DNA from: an uncultured Collinsella sp.
Lineage (GTDB): Bacteria > Actinomycetota > Coriobacteriia > Coriobacteriales > Coriobacteriaceae
Reading direction: 5' to 3'
Assembly: GCA_900555225.1 (NCBI GenBank)
Contig: USKL01000006.1
Span: forward strand, 1-16,104
Length of the DNA: 16,104 nt
Shown: positions 1 through 12,570 of the stretch, piece by piece
Numbering within the stretch: position 1 is the stretch's first letter
Layout: each line of letters opens with the position of its first letter
Notes under the pieces: model-generated
Told to the model about the DNA's origin: nothing
Databases searched by the model: none
Seen by the model: only the letters and a program-made list of their open reading frames with translations
Translations under genes and position numbers: made by a program

Positions 1-1
1 C

Positions 2-115
2 TACTGCTACTGGAAGGCCGACAAGTGGGTTCTCTGCCATGCTGACAGCCCCAAGGCTGCCGAAGGCGGCTACGTAGGTCTCATCGGCAAGAACCTCGAC
101 ATCGCCGTGGACTAG
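2..115 (+). CDS. 3' end of an unrecognised protein gene (partial)
   Basis: An open frame enters from the left edge and ends at TAG 113-115, giving 37 C-terminal residues that begin YCYWKADKWVLCHAD and end in GKNLDIAVD. It is Trp/Cys/Gly-rich and hydrophilic, with no membrane segment. I do not recognise the family and assign no function. Two points support it as real coding sequence. The frame stays open to the edge. Its last 18 codons recur almost unchanged at 1482-1536 with the same stop codon, one difference being a synonymous GGT/GGC change. A palindrome follows 8 bases after the stop and may act as its 3' hairpin. Confidence 0.55.
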   Translation, partial: YCYWKADKWVLCHADSPKAAEGGYVGLIGKNLDIAVD

Positions 116-180
116 AATCTTTCGTCTCGATCTGTAACATCTAGCGGGCTAAATTGTCTCTACCTGTTACAGATCGAGAC
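61..180 (+). repeat. 120-bp direct repeat, left copy
   Basis: This segment matches 1482-1601 over 120 bases without a gap; I count five substitutions by eye. It covers the last 18 codons and stop of the left-edge gene plus the palindrome at 124-180. The two copies are in the same orientation and bracket the AAA+ ATPase gene. Similarity stops abruptly on both sides of each copy. Confidence 0.9.
124..180. repeat. Palindromic repeat A, copy 1
   Basis: Perfect 16-bp inverted repeat: GTCTCGATCTGTAACA at 124-139 and its complement at 165-180, with a 25-base loop. It lies just 3' of the left-edge gene. Related copies are at 204-258 and 1545-1601. It could act as a transcript-end hairpin, but no T-run follows. 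Confidence 0.9.
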
Positions 181-203
181 ATACCGTAGAGGCCGCCCGA
201 AAA

Positions 204-258
204 TCTCGATCTGTAACACCAGGCCCGATTTTGGCGGCCTAACTGTTACAGATCGAGA
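204..258. repeat. Palindromic repeat A, copy 2
   Basis: Inverted repeat with arms TCTCGATCTGTAACA (204-218) and its complement (244-258). The arms match copy 1, but the 25-base loop is different (GC-rich, containing GGCCCG). Conserved arms with a variable loop suggest the stem is what is maintained. Confidence 0.9.
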
Positions 259-273
259 CAAACCGGGCCCAAT

Positions 274-306
274 CCACCACAAAGGTGCCTGTCCCCATTG
301 TGGTGG
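274..306. repeat. Palindromic repeat B, copy 1 (GGTGCCTGTCCCC type)
   Basis: Arms CCACCACAA (274-282) and TTGTGGTGG (298-306) around GGTGCCTGTCCCC. It lies 4 bases beyond the 3' end of the ATPase gene, so on the minus strand it is positioned as a 3' hairpin, though no T-run follows. Other family members are at 1605-1664 and 8237-8269. It resembles REP-type dispersed palindromes. Confidence 0.85.
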
Positions 307-310
307 CTGC

Positions 311-1417
311 CTAGAGCTGGCTGCGCAGATAGTCAGCCATATATGGAACAGCGAAACGCACGTAACCGCGGCGCGCTTGTTCGATAACGCCGGCGTCGAT
401 GAGGCGACGGCGATACTTTTGCGCATAGTCGGGTGTGACTGACATGCGCTTCGCAACATCGGAAATGCGCGAGACGGCGTCTTCGTCATCAATCATTGCG
501 TCGAGAAACGCGACGTCTTGGTCCGATAGCGCGGCGAGCGTCGTTTCACAAACATCGTTTTCGAAATCGGCCTTTGACGCTTCGATAGCTCCGTCGACTT
601 GCTCTGGCGTTACGCGTTTTCCGGCCTCGCAACGATTGGCGATGTTGTAGCCGATGAGCTGCAGCATATAGGGCGAACCTTGGGTTGCACGAGCGGCACG
701 GAGGCGAAGATCGCCTGGAATATCAAGGTTGAGCTCTTCGAAAGCCCGTTGATAATATGCATCGACATCTCCGACTGAAAGCGGTTCGAGCGTGACTTTG
801 CATGCGCGGTTGAGAAATGTCAGTACGCGGTCGTTGAGTGTCGCGGAGACTGCTCCCGGGAGGCCCGCCATGACGAGCGCGACGTTGAGTCCCTCGCCGA
901 CGAGCTCTTGATAGGCGGTGACGAGCTGTCTGATCTCGGGTGAATTTGCTTGGAGCTCGTCGATAAGGACGAGGGTGCCGTGTCCCTGCTCGGTCAGTTT
1001 GCGCGCGAGCTGCGTGAGTTTGAACTGAAAGCTCTTGGTCTCCTGCACGTCTCGTGTGAACTCGAGGCCTGCCGAGAACCCAAAAACACTTAGACTGCCG
1101 CTCGTGAGTTTGGGAAGGCGGCGTTTATTGACGTACGGCTCGCCTGCTTCCTGGATTTTCTCAACAATGCGCTCGAGCATATCCTCGGAGGCTACGGTGG
1201 GCGTGGCGACAACAAAGCCGAGCTTGCGTGCGCGATCGGCAAGTTCCCACAGCAGAACCGTTTTGCCGCTGCCTCGCTGGCCGAGCATGAGCATGGCTCG
1301 GTCTCGATTGCCCGGCTCCTGCTCAAGGCCGGAGATGAATGTCGAAATCACGTTCCCGCGCCCCACCAGATAGGACGGGCGATTTCCAAATGAGGGAGAG
1401 AAGATGGTTTCAGTCAT
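311..1417 (-). CDS. AAA+ family ATPase with C-terminal winged-helix region
   Basis: The 368-residue protein has a P-loop GQRGSGKT at residues 46-53 and a Walker B strand LVLIDELQ with acidic residues near 153-154. A region near residue 180 (VMAGLPG) fits a sensor-1 strand. The C-terminal third looks like a winged helix (MSVTPDYAQKYRRRLIDAGV, then a Gly-Tyr-Val wing). This order resembles the Orc/Cdc6-like and AAA_16 group, often annotated only as ATP-binding protein. A nucleotide-driven, DNA- or partner-binding switch is plausible, but the substrate is unknown. The start has an AGGAGA Shine-Dalgarno 5 bases upstream, behind a purine-rich leader. The gene stands alone between two direct repeats that duplicate the tail of the left-edge gene, which suggests a transferable or inserted gene. 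Confidence 0.85.
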   Translation of the reverse strand: MTETIFSPSFGNRPSYLVGRGNVISTFISGLEQEPGNRDRAMLMLGQRGSGKTVLLWELADRARKLGFVVATPTVASEDMLERIVEKIQEAGEPYVNKRRLPKLTSGSLSVFGFSAGLEFTRDVQETKSFQFKLTQLARKLTEQGHGTLVLIDELQANSPEIRQLVTAYQELVGEGLNVALVMAGLPGAVSATLNDRVLTFLNRACKVTLEPLSVGDVDAYYQRAFEELNLDIPGDLRLRAARATQGSPYMLQLIGYNIANRCEAGKRVTPEQVDGAIEASKADFENDVCETTLAALSDQDVAFLDAMIDDEDAVSRISDVAKRMSVTPDYAQKYRRRLIDAGVIEQARRGYVRFAVPYMADYLRSQL

Positions 1418-1440
1418 GAGTCTCCTTTCCTTTTTTTCCT

Positions 1441-1469
1441 ATTTTTTCCTTTTTTCCCTATTCAGTCAA
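1441..1469 (-). promoter_or_regulatory. Candidate promoter of the AAA+ ATPase gene
   Basis: On the minus strand, TTGACT (1469-1464) is followed after 17 bases by AAAAAT (1446-1441), about 25 bases before the start codon. The spacer and leader are an A/G-rich run. The promoter ends 12 bases from the repeat boundary at 1482, so the ATPase and its promoter fit as one cassette. Confidence 0.5.
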
Positions 1470-1481
1470 ATATCCCGCCGG

Positions 1482-1536
1482 CGAAGGCGGCTACGTAGGC
1501 CTCATCGGCAAGAACCTCGACATCGCCGTGGACTAG
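1482..1536 (+). pseudogene. Duplicated 3' fragment of the left-edge gene
   Basis: The frame reads GEGGYVGLIGKNLDIAVD and stops at TAG 1534-1536. It repeats the last 18 codons of the gene ending at 115. Upstream of 1482 the sequence changes to the ATPase promoter region, with no start codon or ribosome binding site fitting this frame, so this is a tail fragment and not a working gene. It marks the right copy of the 120-bp direct repeat. Confidence 0.7.
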
Positions 1537-1544
1537 AATCTTCT

Positions 1545-1601
1545 GTCTCGATCTGTAACATCTAGTGGGCTAAATCGTCTCTACCTGTTACAGATCGAGA
1601 C
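1545..1601. repeat. Palindromic repeat A, copy 3
   Basis: Perfect 16-bp arms GTCTCGATCTGTAACA (1545-1560) and complement (1586-1601). The loop matches copy 1 except for two C/T differences. Confidence 0.9.
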
Positions 1602-1604
1602 AAA

Positions 1605-1664
1605 CCTGCCCAAACCACCACAAAGGTGCCCGTCCCCTTTGTGGTGGTTGGTGGTTTGGGCAGG
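1605..1664. repeat. Nested palindromic repeat B, copy 2
   Basis: Inner perfect 12-bp stem CCACCACAAAGG (1615-1626) / CCTTTGTGGTGG (1636-1647) around a TGCCCGTCC loop. Outer perfect 16-bp arms CCTGCCCAAACCACCA (1605-1620) and complement (1649-1664) overlap the inner arms, so two alternative stems compete. It follows palindrome A copy 3, the same A-then-B order seen at 124-306. Confidence 0.85.
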
Positions 1665-1779: not shown

Positions 1780-3325
<1,546 letters not shown>

Positions 3326-3438: not shown

Positions 3439-3469
3439 CCACTCATTGGGGACGTACTTAAATGAGTGG
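3439..3469. repeat. GGGGACGT-core palindromic repeat, copy 1
   Basis: Arms CCACTCAT (3439-3446) and ATGAGTGG (3462-3469) enclose TGGGGACGTACTTAA. The same core with other arms recurs at 11455-11487, 12462-12490 and 12538-12570. The rest of the 3223-3656 interval holds the hairpins listed here and an AT-rich stretch (about 3605-3630) where a promoter for the next gene may lie; I could not fix a good -35/-10 pair. Confidence 0.8.
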
Positions 3470-3656
3470 TAGTTGGAGACACTCCTGGCCGAGCTAGAGA
3501 TCGCGCGCGTCCCTTCTGGTCCATGCGGCTCAAAATCGCGGCGTGATGTGGACGGCTGGGGTCGAATTGGCAACATTTCGAGCCTGGCTTCGATATTGAG
3601 ACTGGTTCTTTATTAAAATAGATTTCCAGACAATTGAGCGGCTGGGGGGGTTAACC

Positions 3657-5382: not shown

Positions 5383-8151
5383 CTACAGCAGCTCGCCGTG
5401 GCGGGCAATGTAGCGGCGCTTCGCCAGCTGGGTGAGCGCGATATAGGCGGTAACGATGCCAATGAGCAGCCCAAAAAAGCTCGTGGGCAGCGGCATGAGG
5501 CCGAGCGCATCGGCGATGGGGCTTGTCGGCAGCCAGGTGACGAGCGCCAGGCCCACCACGGTAAGAACGCACAATGCGGGCGCGGCGTGGTCGCGCGGGC
5601 TCGGCAGATGCGGGGAGCGCAACATGTGGACCACGAGTGTCTGCGACCACATGGACTCGACAAACCAGCCGCTCTGGAAGAGCGCAGCAAAGGTCGCCAT
5701 ACCCGCGACGTCGCCCGCGGCGGCAAGCTCGGACCAGCTTGCGTCCACGGCGGCGGGGCACACGACAAAGAAGAGCGCGGCGAAGGTCACGATGTCAAAC
5801 AGCGAGCTCACGGGGCCCAGCTCGAGCATAAAGCCCTTGATGGATGCGGCGTCCCAGGCACGCGGGCGGGCAGTCCAGGCGTCATCGACGGTGTCCCACG
5901 GCAGTGCGATGCACACGATCTCGTAGACCAGCGACAGCAGTACCAGCTGCAGGGCGCTCATGGGCAAAAACGGCAAGAACAGGCTCGCGACGGTCACGGA
6001 CAGCACATTGCCAAAGTTGGAGCTCACCGTGGTCTTGAGGTACTTGATCAGGTTGCCGTAAGTGCGGCGGCCTTCGATGATGCCGCGCTCGAGCACGCCC
6101 AGGTCCTTCTGAAGCAAGATGATATCGGCGGATTCCTTGGCAATATCGACGGCCGAATCGACCGAGATGCCGCAATCGCTCGCACGCATGGCGGCGGCGT
6201 CGTTGATGCCGTCGCCCATAAAGCCCACGGTGTGGCCGAGCATCTCGCGCATGACACGTACCAGGCGCGCCTTCTGCAGCGGCGAGAGCTTGGCGAAGAG
6301 GTGGGTTTTCTCGGCGCGCTCGGCAAGTTCGGCGTCATCGAGCGCATCGATCTCGGAGCCGAGCAAGACGTTGCTCGCATCGATACCAATCTGCTCGCAG
6401 ACGGTGGCGGCGACGCGGTCGTTGTCGCCGGTTAGGACCTTGACCGCCACGCCCTTGGCCTCGAGGGCGGCGACGGCGCCCGCGGCACTTGCTTTGGGCG
6501 GATCGAGGAAGGCCAAAAAGCCCATCAGCACCATGTCGCACTCGTCGGCGATGCCAAACTCGCCCACGCAGCGCGGATTGGTCTTCTGCGCCACGGCAAT
6601 TACGCGTAGGCCCTCAGCGTTAAGTCCGACGATCTGCTTGCGAATCTGGGCGAGCTTCTCGTCGGTGAGCGGCTGAGCGATGCCATCGATCTCGACAAAG
6701 GAGCAGATCTCGAGCATTTCCTCGGCAGCTCCCTTGGTAACCATCTGGGTTTTGCCCTGGGCGTCGGCTACAACTACGCTCAGGCGACGGCGCGAGAAAT
6801 CGAAGGGCACCTCGTCGACCTTGGTATAGCGGTCGCGCAGGCTCTGACCCAGCATGGAATCGGGTGCGACGGTCGAGGGCGTCACGTCGGCACGGTCGAT
6901 TACGGCCAGGTCGATAAGGTTCTTGAGGCCGGTCTGGAAGAAGCTGTTCAAAAACGCATGACGCAGCACGCGTGCGTCCTCGTTGCCGTCGGTGTTGAGG
7001 TAGCGCTCGAGCACGATGCGGTCTTCGGTGAGGGTGCCGGTCTTGTCGCAGCACAGGACGTCCATCGCGCCGAGGTTTTGGATTGCCGGCAGCTCCTTGA
7101 CGATAACCTGGCGGCGGGCGAGGTCCTTGGCGCCCTGCGACAGGCTTGTGGTCACGATGACGGGGAGCATCTGCGGCGTGATGCCCACGGCCACGCTCGT
7201 GGCGAACAGCAGCGCGTCGATGACGTTGCCCTTGGTGGCGGCGTTGATGGCAAAGACGGCCGGCGCCATAACGAGCATGAGGCGTACGAGTAGCATGGAG
7301 ACGCTCGAGACACCGCGGTCAAACGCGCTCTTCTCGCCGCGCCCGTTGAGCATCTTGGCGATGCTGCCCAGGTAGGTGTCCGAGCCGGTGGCAACGACAA
7401 GCGCCATGGCGGTGCCGTTTTGCACGGAGGTGCCGGTAAAGACGATGTTCTTGCAGGCGGAGAGCGGCAGCGCGGAGCCGTCGGCACCCTCGACGACGGT
7501 GATGGCAGCTGTCTTCTCGACGGCCTCGCTCTCGCCGGTGAGCGCGGACTCGATCACAAACAGATCGCGCGCGGTGATGATGCGGGCATCGGCCGGCACC
7601 ATATCGCCGGCAGAGAGACGGATCACATCGCCGGGGACGAGCTCGTCGAAGGGGATCTCGACGCGCTCGCCGTCGCGCAGGGCGGTGCAAGTGTTGGAGA
7701 CCAGGTCCTTGAGGGCCTCTGCCGCATTGCCGCTGCGGGCTTCCTGGATAAACTTCATGCCGCCCGATACCAGCAGCATGATGCCGATGACGATGACCGT
7801 GGAGGGGTCGCGCTGCGGCTCGGGCACGGCGAGCACGTCGATGTAGAGCGAGACCAGCGCGAGCGCGGCGAGGATGCCGGCGAAGGGATCGATGAACGCG
7901 TCGGCGATGCGGCGGGCGAGCGTCTTGGTCGGTGCCTCGATGGTGTTGGGGCCGGAGGCGTCCAGGCGCTCGGTTGCCTGCTCGGCGGTGAGGCCGTTTG
8001 CCGTGGCGTCAAGCAGTACGAGGGCGTCCTCGGCGCTATGGGTGGCGGCGAATATGGTGTTCTTGGACAGGCCGGTGTGAGCGGCAGGGCGCGCCGTGCG
8101 GCGGCGCTTGGAGATGGCTTCGAGTACCGTGGCGGTTTTGAGCATCAGCAT
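5383..8151 (-). CDS. mgtA: Magnesium-translocating P-type ATPase (P3B)
   Basis: This membrane pump imports Mg2+ with ATP hydrolysis. The product is 922 residues from the start chosen here, close to the usual 900. Visible in order: a Lys/Arg-rich N-terminus; a cation-ATPase N-domain (GLTAEQATERLDASGPN); early membrane helices; the actuator motif TGES; the phosphorylation site DKTGTLT with Asp at about 369; the hinge GDGINDA; then an MgtA-like stretch (SNFGNVLSVTVASLFLPFLPM) and further C-terminal helices. The frame is open to 8202, but AAGGAGG lies 5 bases before the ATG at 8151, so that start is preferred. It is transcribed alone with a long leader. MgtA is commonly induced by low Mg2+; here only sequence-level hints of leader control are seen. 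Confidence 0.95.
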   Translation of the reverse strand: MLMLKTATVLEAISKRRRTARPAAHTGLSKNTIFAATHSAEDALVLLDATANGLTAEQATERLDASGPNTIEAPTKTLARRIADAFIDPFAGILAALALVSLYIDVLAVPEPQRDPSTVIVIGIMLLVSGGMKFIQEARSGNAAEALKDLVSNTCTALRDGERVEIPFDELVPGDVIRLSAGDMVPADARIITARDLFVIESALTGESEAVEKTAAITVVEGADGSALPLSACKNIVFTGTSVQNGTAMALVVATGSDTYLGSIAKMLNGRGEKSAFDRGVSSVSMLLVRLMLVMAPAVFAINAATKGNVIDALLFATSVAVGITPQMLPVIVTTSLSQGAKDLARRQVIVKELPAIQNLGAMDVLCCDKTGTLTEDRIVLERYLNTDGNEDARVLRHAFLNSFFQTGLKNLIDLAVIDRADVTPSTVAPDSMLGQSLRDRYTKVDEVPFDFSRRRLSVVVADAQGKTQMVTKGAAEEMLEICSFVEIDGIAQPLTDEKLAQIRKQIVGLNAEGLRVIAVAQKTNPRCVGEFGIADECDMVLMGFLAFLDPPKASAAGAVAALEAKGVAVKVLTGDNDRVAATVCEQIGIDASNVLLGSEIDALDDAELAERAEKTHLFAKLSPLQKARLVRVMREMLGHTVGFMGDGINDAAAMRASDCGISVDSAVDIAKESADIILLQKDLGVLERGIIEGRRTYGNLIKYLKTTVSSNFGNVLSVTVASLFLPFLPMSALQLVLLSLVYEIVCIALPWDTVDDAWTARPRAWDAASIKGFMLELGPVSSLFDIVTFAALFFVVCPAAVDASWSELAAAGDVAGMATFAALFQSGWFVESMWSQTLVVHMLRSPHLPSPRDHAAPALCVLTVVGLALVTWLPTSPIADALGLMPLPTSFFGLLIGIVTAYIALTQLAKRRYIARHGELL

Positions 8152-9637: not shown

Positions 9638-11458
9638 ATGTCCGTTGAGGTCATGAGGACTGTGATCGAGGCCGCCGAGGGCCGCGTGCCCGTCGACACG
9701 CTGTTTACCAATGCACAGATCGTCGACGTGTATGGCCAGCGCGTGGCGCCCGGTAGCGTTGCCGTCAAGGACGGTGTGATCGTCGGCGTGCTCTACGATG
9801 GTCGCGACGATGCCGCTGGCACCTATGAGGCAACTGAGGTCATCGACTGCCAGGGTCGCTATCTCGCTCCCGGTTTTATTGACGGGCATCTGCATATCGA
9901 GTCTTCGAACATCCGTCCCGCCGAGTATGCTCGCATGGCCGCGACGCGCGGTACTACCACCGCCATTGCCGACAGCCACGAGATTGCTAATGTGGCGGGC
10001 CTGGACGGCCTGCGCTTTATGATTGAGGACGGCCGCCGCGCACCCATCTCCATCAAATACATGATGCCTTCGTGCGTGCCCGCGCTGCCCGACGAGCAGG
10101 CCGGTGCCGTTATTTCTGCTGCCGATATGCAGGCGTTTTTTGCCGAGCATCCAGGCGATGTCTTTGGTCTGGGCGAAATGATGAACCTGCCGGGCGTCTT
10201 TATGGCCGACCCCGAGACTTGCGCTCGCGTCGATGCTGCCAACCAGACGCCGTCCAAGCAGGTTGACGGCCACGCGCCGCTCGTTGCCGGCAAGGACCTC
10301 AACGCCTATGCCGCGGCGGGTATTATCGCCGACCACGAGTCGACGATTCCCGAGGAGGCGCTCGATAAACTGTCCCGCGGCATGTATGTGATGCTGCGTG
10401 AGGGCACGTGCAGCCACGATCTGGCCAATTTGTCCCCGATGCTGCTGGAAAACCCCGCCCGCGCCCGCCGCTGCTGCTTTGCGACCGACGACCGCGCTCC
10501 CTCCGACGCGCTTTCGACCGGCATGATCGACAACGCCTGCCGCGTGGCCATCGAGGCCGGCGTCGACCCGGTGGTCGCCATCTCTATGGCGTCCCTTTCC
10601 ACGGCTGAGGCGTTTGGGCTAGATCACGGCTGCCGCGACCCGCACGAGCTACGCGGTGCAATCGCCCCGGGCAAGCGCGCCGACCTGCTGCTGCTCGATG
10701 ACCTGACGTTTGCCAAGGCTCCGCATCGTGTTTATGCCGCCGGTGCCCTGGTGGCGCAGGATGGCACCTTTGTGGGCGAGGTCGCACCCGAGACGGCCGA
10801 GGTCGCAGCGCTTGCCGATGAGCTGCGTGCTTCCGTTAAGCTGCCGAAGCTTTCGCTTGACGTGTTCGATTATGCCTTTAAGCCGGGCGAGGCCGTTATC
10901 GATGTTATCCCGGGTATGGCTATCACGGGTATGGCCCGCCCCGAGAGCGCCGAGGACTTGCGCCGCATTATGCTGATTGAGCGCCATGGCCGCGGCGTGT
11001 CGCTGCAGGCCGAGGGCGCCGATGGCGACGGCCCCGCTGGCCTGGGCCTGGTCGGCAAGCATATCGGTCGCGGCTGGGTGCGCGGTTTCACCATCACGGG
11101 TGGCGCCATTGCCTCCACGATCGGCCACGACTCACACAACGTGTGCGTGGTGGGCGACAATGCGGCGGATATGATGGCTGCCGTTGAGGCCGTGGGCCAG
11201 GGCGGTCACGTACTGGTGCGCAACGGCGAGGTCGTGGCGCGCATTCCGCTGGCGCTCGGTGGTCTTATGAGCGAAGGCACGGCAGAGGATGTCGCCGCAC
11301 AGCACGACGACTTTATGGTCAAGGCGCGCGCCATGGGCATCGAGCCGCCGCTCGACCCCATCATGGGCATCATCTTCCTGCCCCTGCCGGTCATCCCGAC
11401 GCTCCGCATCCGCCCCGAGGGCATGTTCGACGTTACAACCTTCACCTTCGCCGACTAG
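9638..11458 (+). CDS. ade: Adenine deaminase
   Basis: This enzyme of the amidohydrolase superfamily converts adenine to hypoxanthine and ammonia for purine salvage. From ATG 9638 it has 606 residues, near the family's usual 570-600. The metal-binding DGHLHIESS lies at 82-90 with the HxH pair at 84 and 86, followed by TTTAIADSHEIANVAG and a second metal-site Glu in GLGEMMNLPG. HAP, ADHES and FATDDR follow in the usual order. The C-terminal domain contains TGGAIASTIGHDSHN and PLALGGLMS, both typical of Ade. AAAGGAG stands 5 bases before ATG 9638. The longer open frame from a TTG at 9596 runs through the leader hairpin and is not used. A repeat begins at its stop codon. Confidence 0.94.
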   Translation: MSVEVMRTVIEAAEGRVPVDTLFTNAQIVDVYGQRVAPGSVAVKDGVIVGVLYDGRDDAAGTYEATEVIDCQGRYLAPGFIDGHLHIESSNIRPAEYARMAATRGTTTAIADSHEIANVAGLDGLRFMIEDGRRAPISIKYMMPSCVPALPDEQAGAVISAADMQAFFAEHPGDVFGLGEMMNLPGVFMADPETCARVDAANQTPSKQVDGHAPLVAGKDLNAYAAAGIIADHESTIPEEALDKLSRGMYVMLREGTCSHDLANLSPMLLENPARARRCCFATDDRAPSDALSTGMIDNACRVAIEAGVDPVVAISMASLSTAEAFGLDHGCRDPHELRGAIAPGKRADLLLLDDLTFAKAPHRVYAAGALVAQDGTFVGEVAPETAEVAALADELRASVKLPKLSLDVFDYAFKPGEAVIDVIPGMAITGMARPESAEDLRRIMLIERHGRGVSLQAEGADGDGPAGLGLVGKHIGRGWVRGFTITGGAIASTIGHDSHNVCVVGDNAADMMAAVEAVGQGGHVLVRNGEVVARIPLALGGLMSEGTAEDVAAQHDDFMVKARAMGIEPPLDPIMGIIFLPLPVIPTLRIRPEGMFDVTTFTFAD

Positions 11459-11487
11459 TCATCGGGGACGTTCTTAAACGACTAGTC
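11455..11487. repeat. GGGGACGT-core palindromic repeat, copy 2
   Basis: A 33-base unit: CTAGTCATCGGGGACGTTCT, then TAAACGACTAGTC. The GACTAGTC ends are themselves palindromic. It overlaps the TAG stop of ade (11456-11458). The same unit in reverse orientation, differing by one base, is at 12538-12570. A partial, degenerate core (GGGGACATTCTTTGG) follows at 11491-11505. Confidence 0.85.
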
Positions 11488-11565
11488 GTTGGGGACATTC
11501 TTTGGCGGGCCGCCTGACGTCGCGACCGTGGGGCCTCTGGCATGTGTGAGCTATTTGCCAGGTCC

Positions 11566-12490: not shown

Positions 12491-12537
12491 ACAGTGGGGG
12501 ACAGTCCTTGCGGCTTTTTGCGAAGAGTGTCCCCAGT

Positions 12538-12570
12538 GACTAGTCGTTTAAGAACGTCCCCAATGACTAG
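12538..12570. repeat. GGGGACGT-core palindromic repeat, copy 4 (inverted)
   Basis: Reverse complement of the 33-base unit at 11455-11487 with one difference. It overlaps the stop codon of the second HAD gene (12567-12569), just as the other copy overlaps the stop of ade. The two inverted copies bracket the first HAD gene. Confidence 0.85.

What the first reader, a model, noticed from the sequence alone, without database searches (positions are those of the whole stretch)
61..1601. AAA+ ATPase gene inserted between duplicated tails of another gene
Two 120-base direct repeats with about 96% identity by eye enclose one ATPase gene and its own promoter. Each repeat carries the last 18 codons and stop of the left-edge gene plus a 16-bp-arm palindrome, and each is followed by a type B palindrome. 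An element that regenerates the 3' end of its target gene on insertion leaves this picture; a tandem duplication with replacement is the alternative. No integrase or transposase is present, so the ATPase cassette may be moved in trans, possibly with a role in mobility or defence. The inserted-cassette reading is inference; the repeats are seen directly.
Basis: partly seen in the sequence, partly recalled or inferred. Interest (0 to 1): 0.72.

Follow-up and report, generated by a model that had tools for sequence, protein, structure and literature searches.

The report
ATPase gene between duplicated gene tails
In a gut bacterium an optional gene for a DNA-binding-type ATPase sits between two copies of the last bit of its neighbour gene, most likely a one-off insertion scar rather than a jumping element, while the ATPase family itself shows an odd trait: most members have their own private repeated sequence just in front of them.

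Summary
The repeats are real: window 61-185 and 1482-1606 match over 125 nt at 95% and flank an ATPase gene (311-1417, minus strand) in Collinsella. Each holds the last 17 codons plus stop of a DUF4867 gene and a 16-bp-arm palindrome. Empty sites exist: of 22 genus genomes with this gene end, 4 are filled, 1 keeps only ATPase promoter repeats as a scar, 15 are empty, 2 undetermined. All six filled alleles seen share one junction, so a single event is likely. None of 45 other ATPase loci shows an intact copy of this picture; decayed ones would be missed. Both palindromes are dispersed genome repeats. Most likely the ATPase and its promoter were added once by one-sided homologous recombination or template switching; the duplicated tail is the by-product. 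Off the question: 29 of 31 ATPase clusters carry 9-20-nt periodic tandem repeats just upstream (10 of 245 control ORFs do). The unit differs between paralogues; three types searched genus-wide lay beside their own ATPase or its relic in 31 of 33 genomes. I read them as private operators; binding is untested.

The parts
1..115 (+). 3' end of the DUF4867 gene, cut by the window edge; stop TAG 113-115
   Evidence: full-length gene in L065 is PF16161
61..185 (+). left copy of the direct repeat: last 17 codons + stop of the DUF4867 gene and type A palindrome
124..180 (.). type A palindrome, left copy (16-bp arms GTCTCGATCTGTAACA/TGTTACAGATCGAGAC)
   Evidence: I14; dispersed, in 23 of 43 genus genomes
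204..258 (.). extra type A palindrome, in the window present only in the left copy
   Evidence: it lies on the other side in some relatives
274..306 (.). type B palindrome, left copy
   Evidence: D2, I4; dispersed
311..1417 (-). ATPase gene, 368 aa: AAA+ domain with Walker A/B and a C-terminal winged-helix-like domain (my reading of the model); SSO1545/Pab2304-like fold
   Evidence: dN/dS 0.04-0.11 in 14 of 15 pairs
1426..1469 (-). promoter-operator region: TTGAC box (-35-like, my reading) followed by four AGGAAA-type tandem repeats (minus strand), conserved in 61-69% identical relatives of other genera
1482..1606 (+). right copy of the direct repeat (tail of DUF4867 without the rest of the gene, stop 1534-1536, plus type A palindrome 1545-1601)
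1615..1647 (.). type B palindrome, right copy
1792..3222 (+). glycoside hydrolase family 1 gene, right-hand neighbour in the filled alleles and in 6 of 15 empty ones

Best explanation
The locus is an accessory gene cassette (ATPase gene plus its own promoter with tandem repeats) that was added once at the 3' end of the DUF4867 gene in an ancestor of part of the Collinsella aerofaciens group. The ATPase lies exactly at the joint of a duplicated stretch (gene tail, palindromes A and B). Such a structure arises in one step when DNA that already carries tail-palindromes-ATPase joins by a single homologous crossover (circle or one-ended donor DNA), or when a replication fork stalled at the palindromes copies the ATPase and then restarts upstream in the tail. 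Shown: the duplication, its constant junction in six alleles, the empty alleles, a scar allele, decay of the right-hand tail in one lineage and likeness of the two tails within the other. Inferred: the joining mechanism, and that crossing over between the repeats can remove the ATPase again without trace. The ATPase is kept by selection; from its fold and the private tandem repeats in its promoter I infer a DNA-binding ATPase that regulates its own gene. What else it does is not shown.
For: Empty, filled and scar alleles at one site. The same junction (promoter repeats, GTCAAAT, 10-11 variable nt, then CGA[A/G]GGCGGCT of the tail) in all six filled alleles seen: window, L125, G004, G005, G011, G021. 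Right tail decayed in G011 (23 of 123 positions differ from its left copy), cut to about 18 nt in G004, split by an IS110-type element in G005. In window, G021 and L125 the coding part of the two tails differs within a genome by 2, 0 and 1 of 62 positions, between genomes by 2-6 of 62, which speaks for exchange between the copies; the extra type A palindrome sits on the left in window and L125, on the right in G005, G011 and G021. No intact repeat of this kind at 45 other loci of the family. dN/dS of the ATPase 0.04-0.11 in 14 of 15 pairs; the fifteenth, G011-G005 (0.33), is between nearly identical genes. Promoter repeats conserved in relatives of other genera at 61-69% protein identity.
Against: The direction is not proved: the filled allele could be older, and some empty alleles could be products of loss. 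The filled state (scar counted in) is scattered on two gene trees (6 changes on gltA, 4 on the upstream region), so repeated loss or transfer is needed, and the two trees disagree. No allele with the ATPase but without any trace of a second tail was found, so the donor form is hypothetical. The within-genome likeness of the tails rests on three genomes; over the whole 125 nt it is weaker (4-6 differences within, 5-12 between genomes). The test of other loci misses decayed repeats. Self-regulation rests on sequence pattern only.
Confidence: 0.6

Rival explanations
1. Tandem duplication first: the gene tail with its palindromes was duplicated in tandem, and the ATPase gene was inserted between the copies later; or an originally present ATPase was lost from most lineages so that the empty alleles are derived.
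For: Palindromes A and B are dispersed repeats, and such spots favour local duplication (general knowledge). Losses do occur: G012 keeps only the promoter repeats, and 6 genomes carry a deleted relic of another family member.
Against: No allele with two tails and no ATPase was seen among the 20 decidable genomes; insertion exactly at the duplication joint would be a coincidence; 15 of these 20 have one tail and no ATPase.
Confidence: 0.22
2. Site-specific integrative element: the 3' end of the DUF4867 gene is the attachment site, the element restores the gene end, and the recombinase acts in trans or has been lost.
For: Picture of a regenerated gene end with the displaced copy on the far side; empty alleles exist.
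Against: No recombinase in the cassette. In the 15 empty genomes no inserted gene lies between the DUF4867 end and the GH1 gene (6) or in the 600 nt printed (9). The tail matched once in each of 21 of 22 genomes and twice in G021 (which also misses decayed copies) and is not found in viral contigs. Other ATPase loci lack intact repeats of this kind. The repeat is long for a core site (recalled).
Confidence: 0.1
3. Spread of the filled allele between strains by ordinary double crossover in the flanking genes, after an origin that can no longer be reconstructed.
For: The filled state is scattered on gene trees; G011 and G005 share a nearly identical ATPase (99.8%) and upstream region but differ more in neighbouring bgl (95.5%) and in gltA (96.1%); between the two lineages the ATPase differs more (86.9-90.1% identity) than bgl (90.9-94.5%) in the same pairs.
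Against: Does not by itself explain the tail duplication; it is compatible with the best explanation as a later stage.
Confidence: 0.3

Closest known systems
SSO1545 / Pab2304 archaeal ATPases (Pfam ATPase_2, STAND-related)
   Different: Only 16-18% identity; the Pfam ATPase_2 hit is below its cut-off (25.9 of 33.2 bits); the function of the archaeal proteins was not looked up
Archaeal Orc1/Cdc6 initiators
IniR of mycobacteria (regulator with SSO1545-like ATPase domain)
   Same: Actinobacterial protein with an SSO1545-like ATPase domain that binds a promoter (PMC5760070, passages seen)
   Different: 818 aa with a MalT-like domain and an SdiA-like DNA-binding domain, acts on the iniBAC operon; here 368 aa, no such sensor domain, repeats found only at its own gene
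Integrative elements that restore the 3' end of a target gene
   Same: Gene end kept intact on the element side, displaced gene end on the far side
   Different: No recombinase, one site only as far as seen, repeat longer than a usual core site (recalled)
REP/BIME-type dispersed palindromes
   Same: Palindromes A and B are short, dispersed palindromes
   Different: An associated transposase was not sought

Membership tests
Integrative element with attachment site in a gene's 3' end | empty-site allele with one copy of the repeat | tested here: met
   6 genomes with the same right-hand gene, 9 without it
Integrative element with attachment site in a gene's 3' end | recombinase gene on the element | tested here: not met
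   between the repeats the ATPase is the only ORF over 112 aa, and it is no recombinase
Integrative element with attachment site in a gene's 3' end | same element ends at other sites, or other elements at this site | tested here: inconclusive
   0 of 45 other ATPase loci with an intact repeat, but decayed ones would be missed; no inserted gene in the stretches examined behind the gene end of 15 empty genomes
Transposon or IS | terminal inverted repeats, short target duplication, transposase | tested here: not met
   the palindromes are dispersed repeats, not paired ends; the repeat is a gene tail, not a short target duplication; no transposase in the cassette
SSO1545/Pab2304-like STAND-related ATPases | shared fold over the whole protein | tested here: met
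SSO1545/Pab2304-like STAND-related ATPases | sequence above the Pfam ATPase_2 cut-off | tested here: not met
   25.9 bits against 33.2; AAA_16 and AAA_22 do pass
Archaeal Orc1/Cdc6 initiators | initiation of DNA replication at adjacent repeats | not testable with these tools
   only fold and repeats are known
Known anti-phage defence systems | match to a PADLOC model | tested here: inconclusive
   best E 0.0094, short stretch

The most novel reading that the evidence does not exclude
Each ATPase of this family with its private tandem repeats is a minimal self-recognising module, like an initiator with its iterons: the ATPase assembles on its own repeats and can keep a small circular copy of itself alive for a while; such circles carrying a piece of neighbouring DNA re-enter chromosomes by a single crossover, which leaves the gene-tail duplication seen here. 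The family would then be integrated, replicon-like cassettes of these gut actinobacteria that are repeatedly gained and lost.
Probability: 0.07. Interest if true: 0.85.

Novelty: new variant of a known kind. Interest (0 to 1): 0.42.

Why it matters
The locus itself is a clear natural series (empty, filled, decayed, scar) for how an accessory gene can land in a chromosome without an enzyme of its own for moving, leaving a duplicated gene end that may later undo it. The wider point is the ATPase family: about 30 clusters, mostly from one genus, of which nearly all have a tandem repeat in front of the gene, with a unit that differs between paralogues; the three types searched were found almost nowhere else. 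If each protein reads only its own repeat, this is a ready set of matched protein and DNA-site pairs for a STAND/Orc-like fold, which would make it possible to test how such ATPases recognise DNA and why cells keep several insulated copies. I found no description of this in the paper searches made (listings only), which cover open-licence papers only.

Tried and rejected
Rejected: palindromes as the cassette's ends (they are dispersed). Not borne out: a family habit of duplicating gene tails. One search tested 48 ATPase hits; 6 are the filled site itself (G004's twice) and one other locus is there twice, which leaves 41 other loci, many of them orthologues of each other in different genomes; one search added 4 (L129-L132). 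None has a repeat of 100 nt or more close on both sides. Nine have short 27-52-nt repeats, and L097 has a 186-nt repeat whose left copy is over 1 kb away; none was followed up. The test uses 1500-nt flanks and sees well-kept repeats only: at the filled site itself it gave just 41 nt for G004 and nothing for G005.

Led nowhere: viral contigs for the ATPase and for the tail; plasmid collection (one Collinsella record, best place 12% of the query in three pieces); Rfam (one hit at E 0.41); PADLOC; NCBIfam (below cut-off); sequence search of solved structures (best E 0.038). Partial Mantel test on 29 full-length clusters of repeat likeness against winged-helix likeness with the AAA domain held constant: r 0.17, permutation p 0.015; the other way round the AAA domain gives r 0.51, so co-evolution with the winged helix in particular is not shown. 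In the phylum sample the periodic repeats thin out: of 29 loci tested (one more gave no hit), 8 of 11 from the order of G001 and 2 of 18 from outside it reach p<=0.01, and four of those 8 are proteins already; one of the two outside is a 13-nt array of another look (L146), the other is L143. A first gltA tree was wrong because some loci were on the other strand; it was rebuilt.

Full report
WHAT IS THERE. The window is Collinsella DNA of the C. aerofaciens group (named relatives; the window's own assembly is not held). At its left edge lies the end of a gene that, in an empty-site relative (L065), is a full-length DUF4867 gene behind luxS, a sugar kinase and transketolase genes (names other than DUF4867 are my reading of the translations). 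The last 17 codons and stop, a palindrome with 16-bp arms (type A) and a palindrome of type B appear twice, at 61-306 and 1482-1647, on either side of an ATPase gene on the minus strand at 311-1417. The core repeat is 125 nt at 95.2%. The left copy has an extra type A palindrome at about 204-258.

ALLELES AT THE SITE. I searched the 43 held genomes of the genus. 22 have the DUF4867 end. Fetched and compared: filled 4 (G004, G005, G011, G021); scar 1 (G012); empty with the same GH1 gene to the right 6 (G003, G019, G024, G031, G034, G035); empty without the GH1 gene 9 (G001, G002, G006, G007, G008, G009, G010, G018, G026); undetermined because the contig ends or reads badly there 2 (G032, G033). 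A further filled allele is C. aerofaciens BSD2780061688st1_F5 (L125), which is not one of the four.

ONE EVENT, THEN DRIFT. In all six filled alleles seen (window, L125, G004, G005, G011, G021) the same order holds: gene end, palindromes, ATPase, promoter repeats, GTCAAAT, 10-11 nt of variable sequence, then the second tail beginning at CGA[A/G]GGCGGCT. Two lineages exist. In window, L125 and G021 both tails are intact, and in their coding part more alike within a genome (2, 1, 0 of 62 positions differ) than between genomes (2-6 of 62); over the full 125 nt the contrast is weaker (4-6 within, 5-12 between). In G011 the right tail is decayed (23 of 123 positions), in G005 it is split by an IS110-type element, in G004 about 18 nt remain. 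The extra type A palindrome lies left in window and L125 and right in G005, G011 and G021. Likeness and swap both suggest exchange between the flanks. G012 has lost the ATPase reading frame but keeps its promoter repeats (41 nt at 95%). With the scar counted as filled, the state changes 6 times on a gltA tree (window and 21 genomes, two of them without a state) and 4 times on a tree of the upstream region (21 genomes and L125), and these trees disagree, so loss or transfer by recombination has been common. ATPase identity between the two lineages is 86.9-90.1%, lower than in bgl of the same pairs (90.9-94.5%): the cassette is not young.

NOT SHOWN TO BE A MOBILE FAMILY HABIT. I tested 41 other ATPase loci and 4 more (L129-L132). 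Many are orthologues of one another. None of the 45 has a direct repeat of 100 nt or more close to the ATPase on both sides. The test would miss decayed repeats: at the filled site itself it found 41 nt in G004 and nothing in G005. Neither a relative of the ATPase nor the tail was found in viral contigs (close matches only).

MECHANISM. The ATPase sits exactly at the joint of a duplicated stretch. A single homologous crossover of a circle or one-ended donor that already carried tail-palindromes-ATPase gives this in one step, and so does template switching at the palindromes. Duplication followed by independent insertion needs a coincidence, but cannot be excluded. Direct repeats of this length could also let the ATPase be lost without trace (inference from general knowledge of recombination).

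PRIVATE REPEATS, THE UNEXPECTED PART. The 100 nt upstream of the start carry tandem repeats with 9-20-nt period. Clustering 85 ATPase hits at 80% identity gave 31 clusters; 29 have periodicity at p<=0.01 against 200 dinucleotide shuffles; L007 (p 0.13) and L029 (p 0.04) do not. Starts were picked by a simple rule. Clusters are not all independent: six, the window's among them, are one subfamily, and L016 and L026 (a broken copy) look like the same gene. As control, 10 of 245 other mechanical ORFs of 200 aa or more in the same loci reach p<=0.01 with 100 shuffles; some of these ORFs are surely not genes, and they were not matched for A+T. The unit differs between paralogues, but is the same in relatives of other genera at 61-69% identity. 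I searched three repeat types through the 43 genomes with up to 3 mismatches. Window type: 6 genomes, 4 beside the ATPase, 1 the G012 scar, 1 orphan in G015 between the ends of two genes. Second type: 13 genomes, 7 beside a full ATPase and 6 beside a deleted relic of it. Third type: 14 genomes, all beside the ATPase (positions compared). That is 25 of 33 beside a full-length ATPase, 6 beside a relic and 2 beside none. No match lay in front of an unrelated gene, but long patterns would miss single or diverged sites, and the G021 copy of the window type, which has an indel, was missed. A TTGAC box precedes the window-type repeats, so a protein bound there would lie on the promoter; self-repression is the simplest reading and is untested. 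In the phylum sample 8 of 11 loci from the order of G001 (four of them proteins already counted) but only 2 of 18 from outside it show periodicity at p<=0.01; several of the latter seem to have one inverted repeat near the start by eye, not scored.

COMPARISON. The nearest described protein I found is IniR of mycobacteria, an 818-aa regulator with an SSO1545-like ATPase domain that binds a promoter (PMC5760070, passages seen). It differs in size, further domains and target. My paper searches (listings only, open-licence library) found no account of this Collinsella family or its repeats.

VERDICT. Observation confirmed. The inserted-cassette reading is right in outline; the mobile-element reading is not supported. 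The locus alone is of modest interest; the family of ATPases with private promoter repeats deserves the bench tests listed.

Noticed in passing
window 1426-1469 and upstream regions of the ATPases in L005-L029, L076-L112, L129-L132: Nearly every ATPase cluster has its own A/T-rich 9-20-nt periodic tandem repeat just upstream of the start (29 of 31 clusters); the repeat sequence differs between paralogues.
   Followed up: partly
L133 3584-3618 (G015:C3:1179083-1179117): Orphan copy of the window-type promoter repeats (1 mismatch) between the ends of a LacI-type and a HAD-type gene (my reading of the translations), with no ATPase there.
   Followed up: partly
L194-L199: In six genomes a second ATPase paralogue is a relic: promoter repeats kept, a stretch with the Walker A region and a later stretch missing, winged-helix end still readable.
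   Followed up: partly
L064 about 6430-7490 (G021): The GH1 gene beside the filled allele of G021 lacks an internal stretch of about 600 nt.
   Followed up: no
L063 4741-5919 (G005): IS110-type transposase gene inside the right-hand gene tail.
   Followed up: yes
window 3443-3489, 11455-11502, 12520-12570: Another repeated sequence (CATTGGGGACGT...): arms 11455-11502 and 12523-12570 are 92% complementary and 1020 nt apart, and 3443-3489 is a further relative.
   Followed up: no
L145, L147, L153, L160, L163: ATPase relatives outside the order of G001 seem to have a single inverted repeat close to the start instead of tandem repeats (by eye).
   Followed up: no
P0013: A 552-aa metagenome protein, 95% identical to the ATPase over 87% of it, is labelled PF01546 (a peptidase family, recalled), perhaps a deletion fusion.
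   Followed up: no
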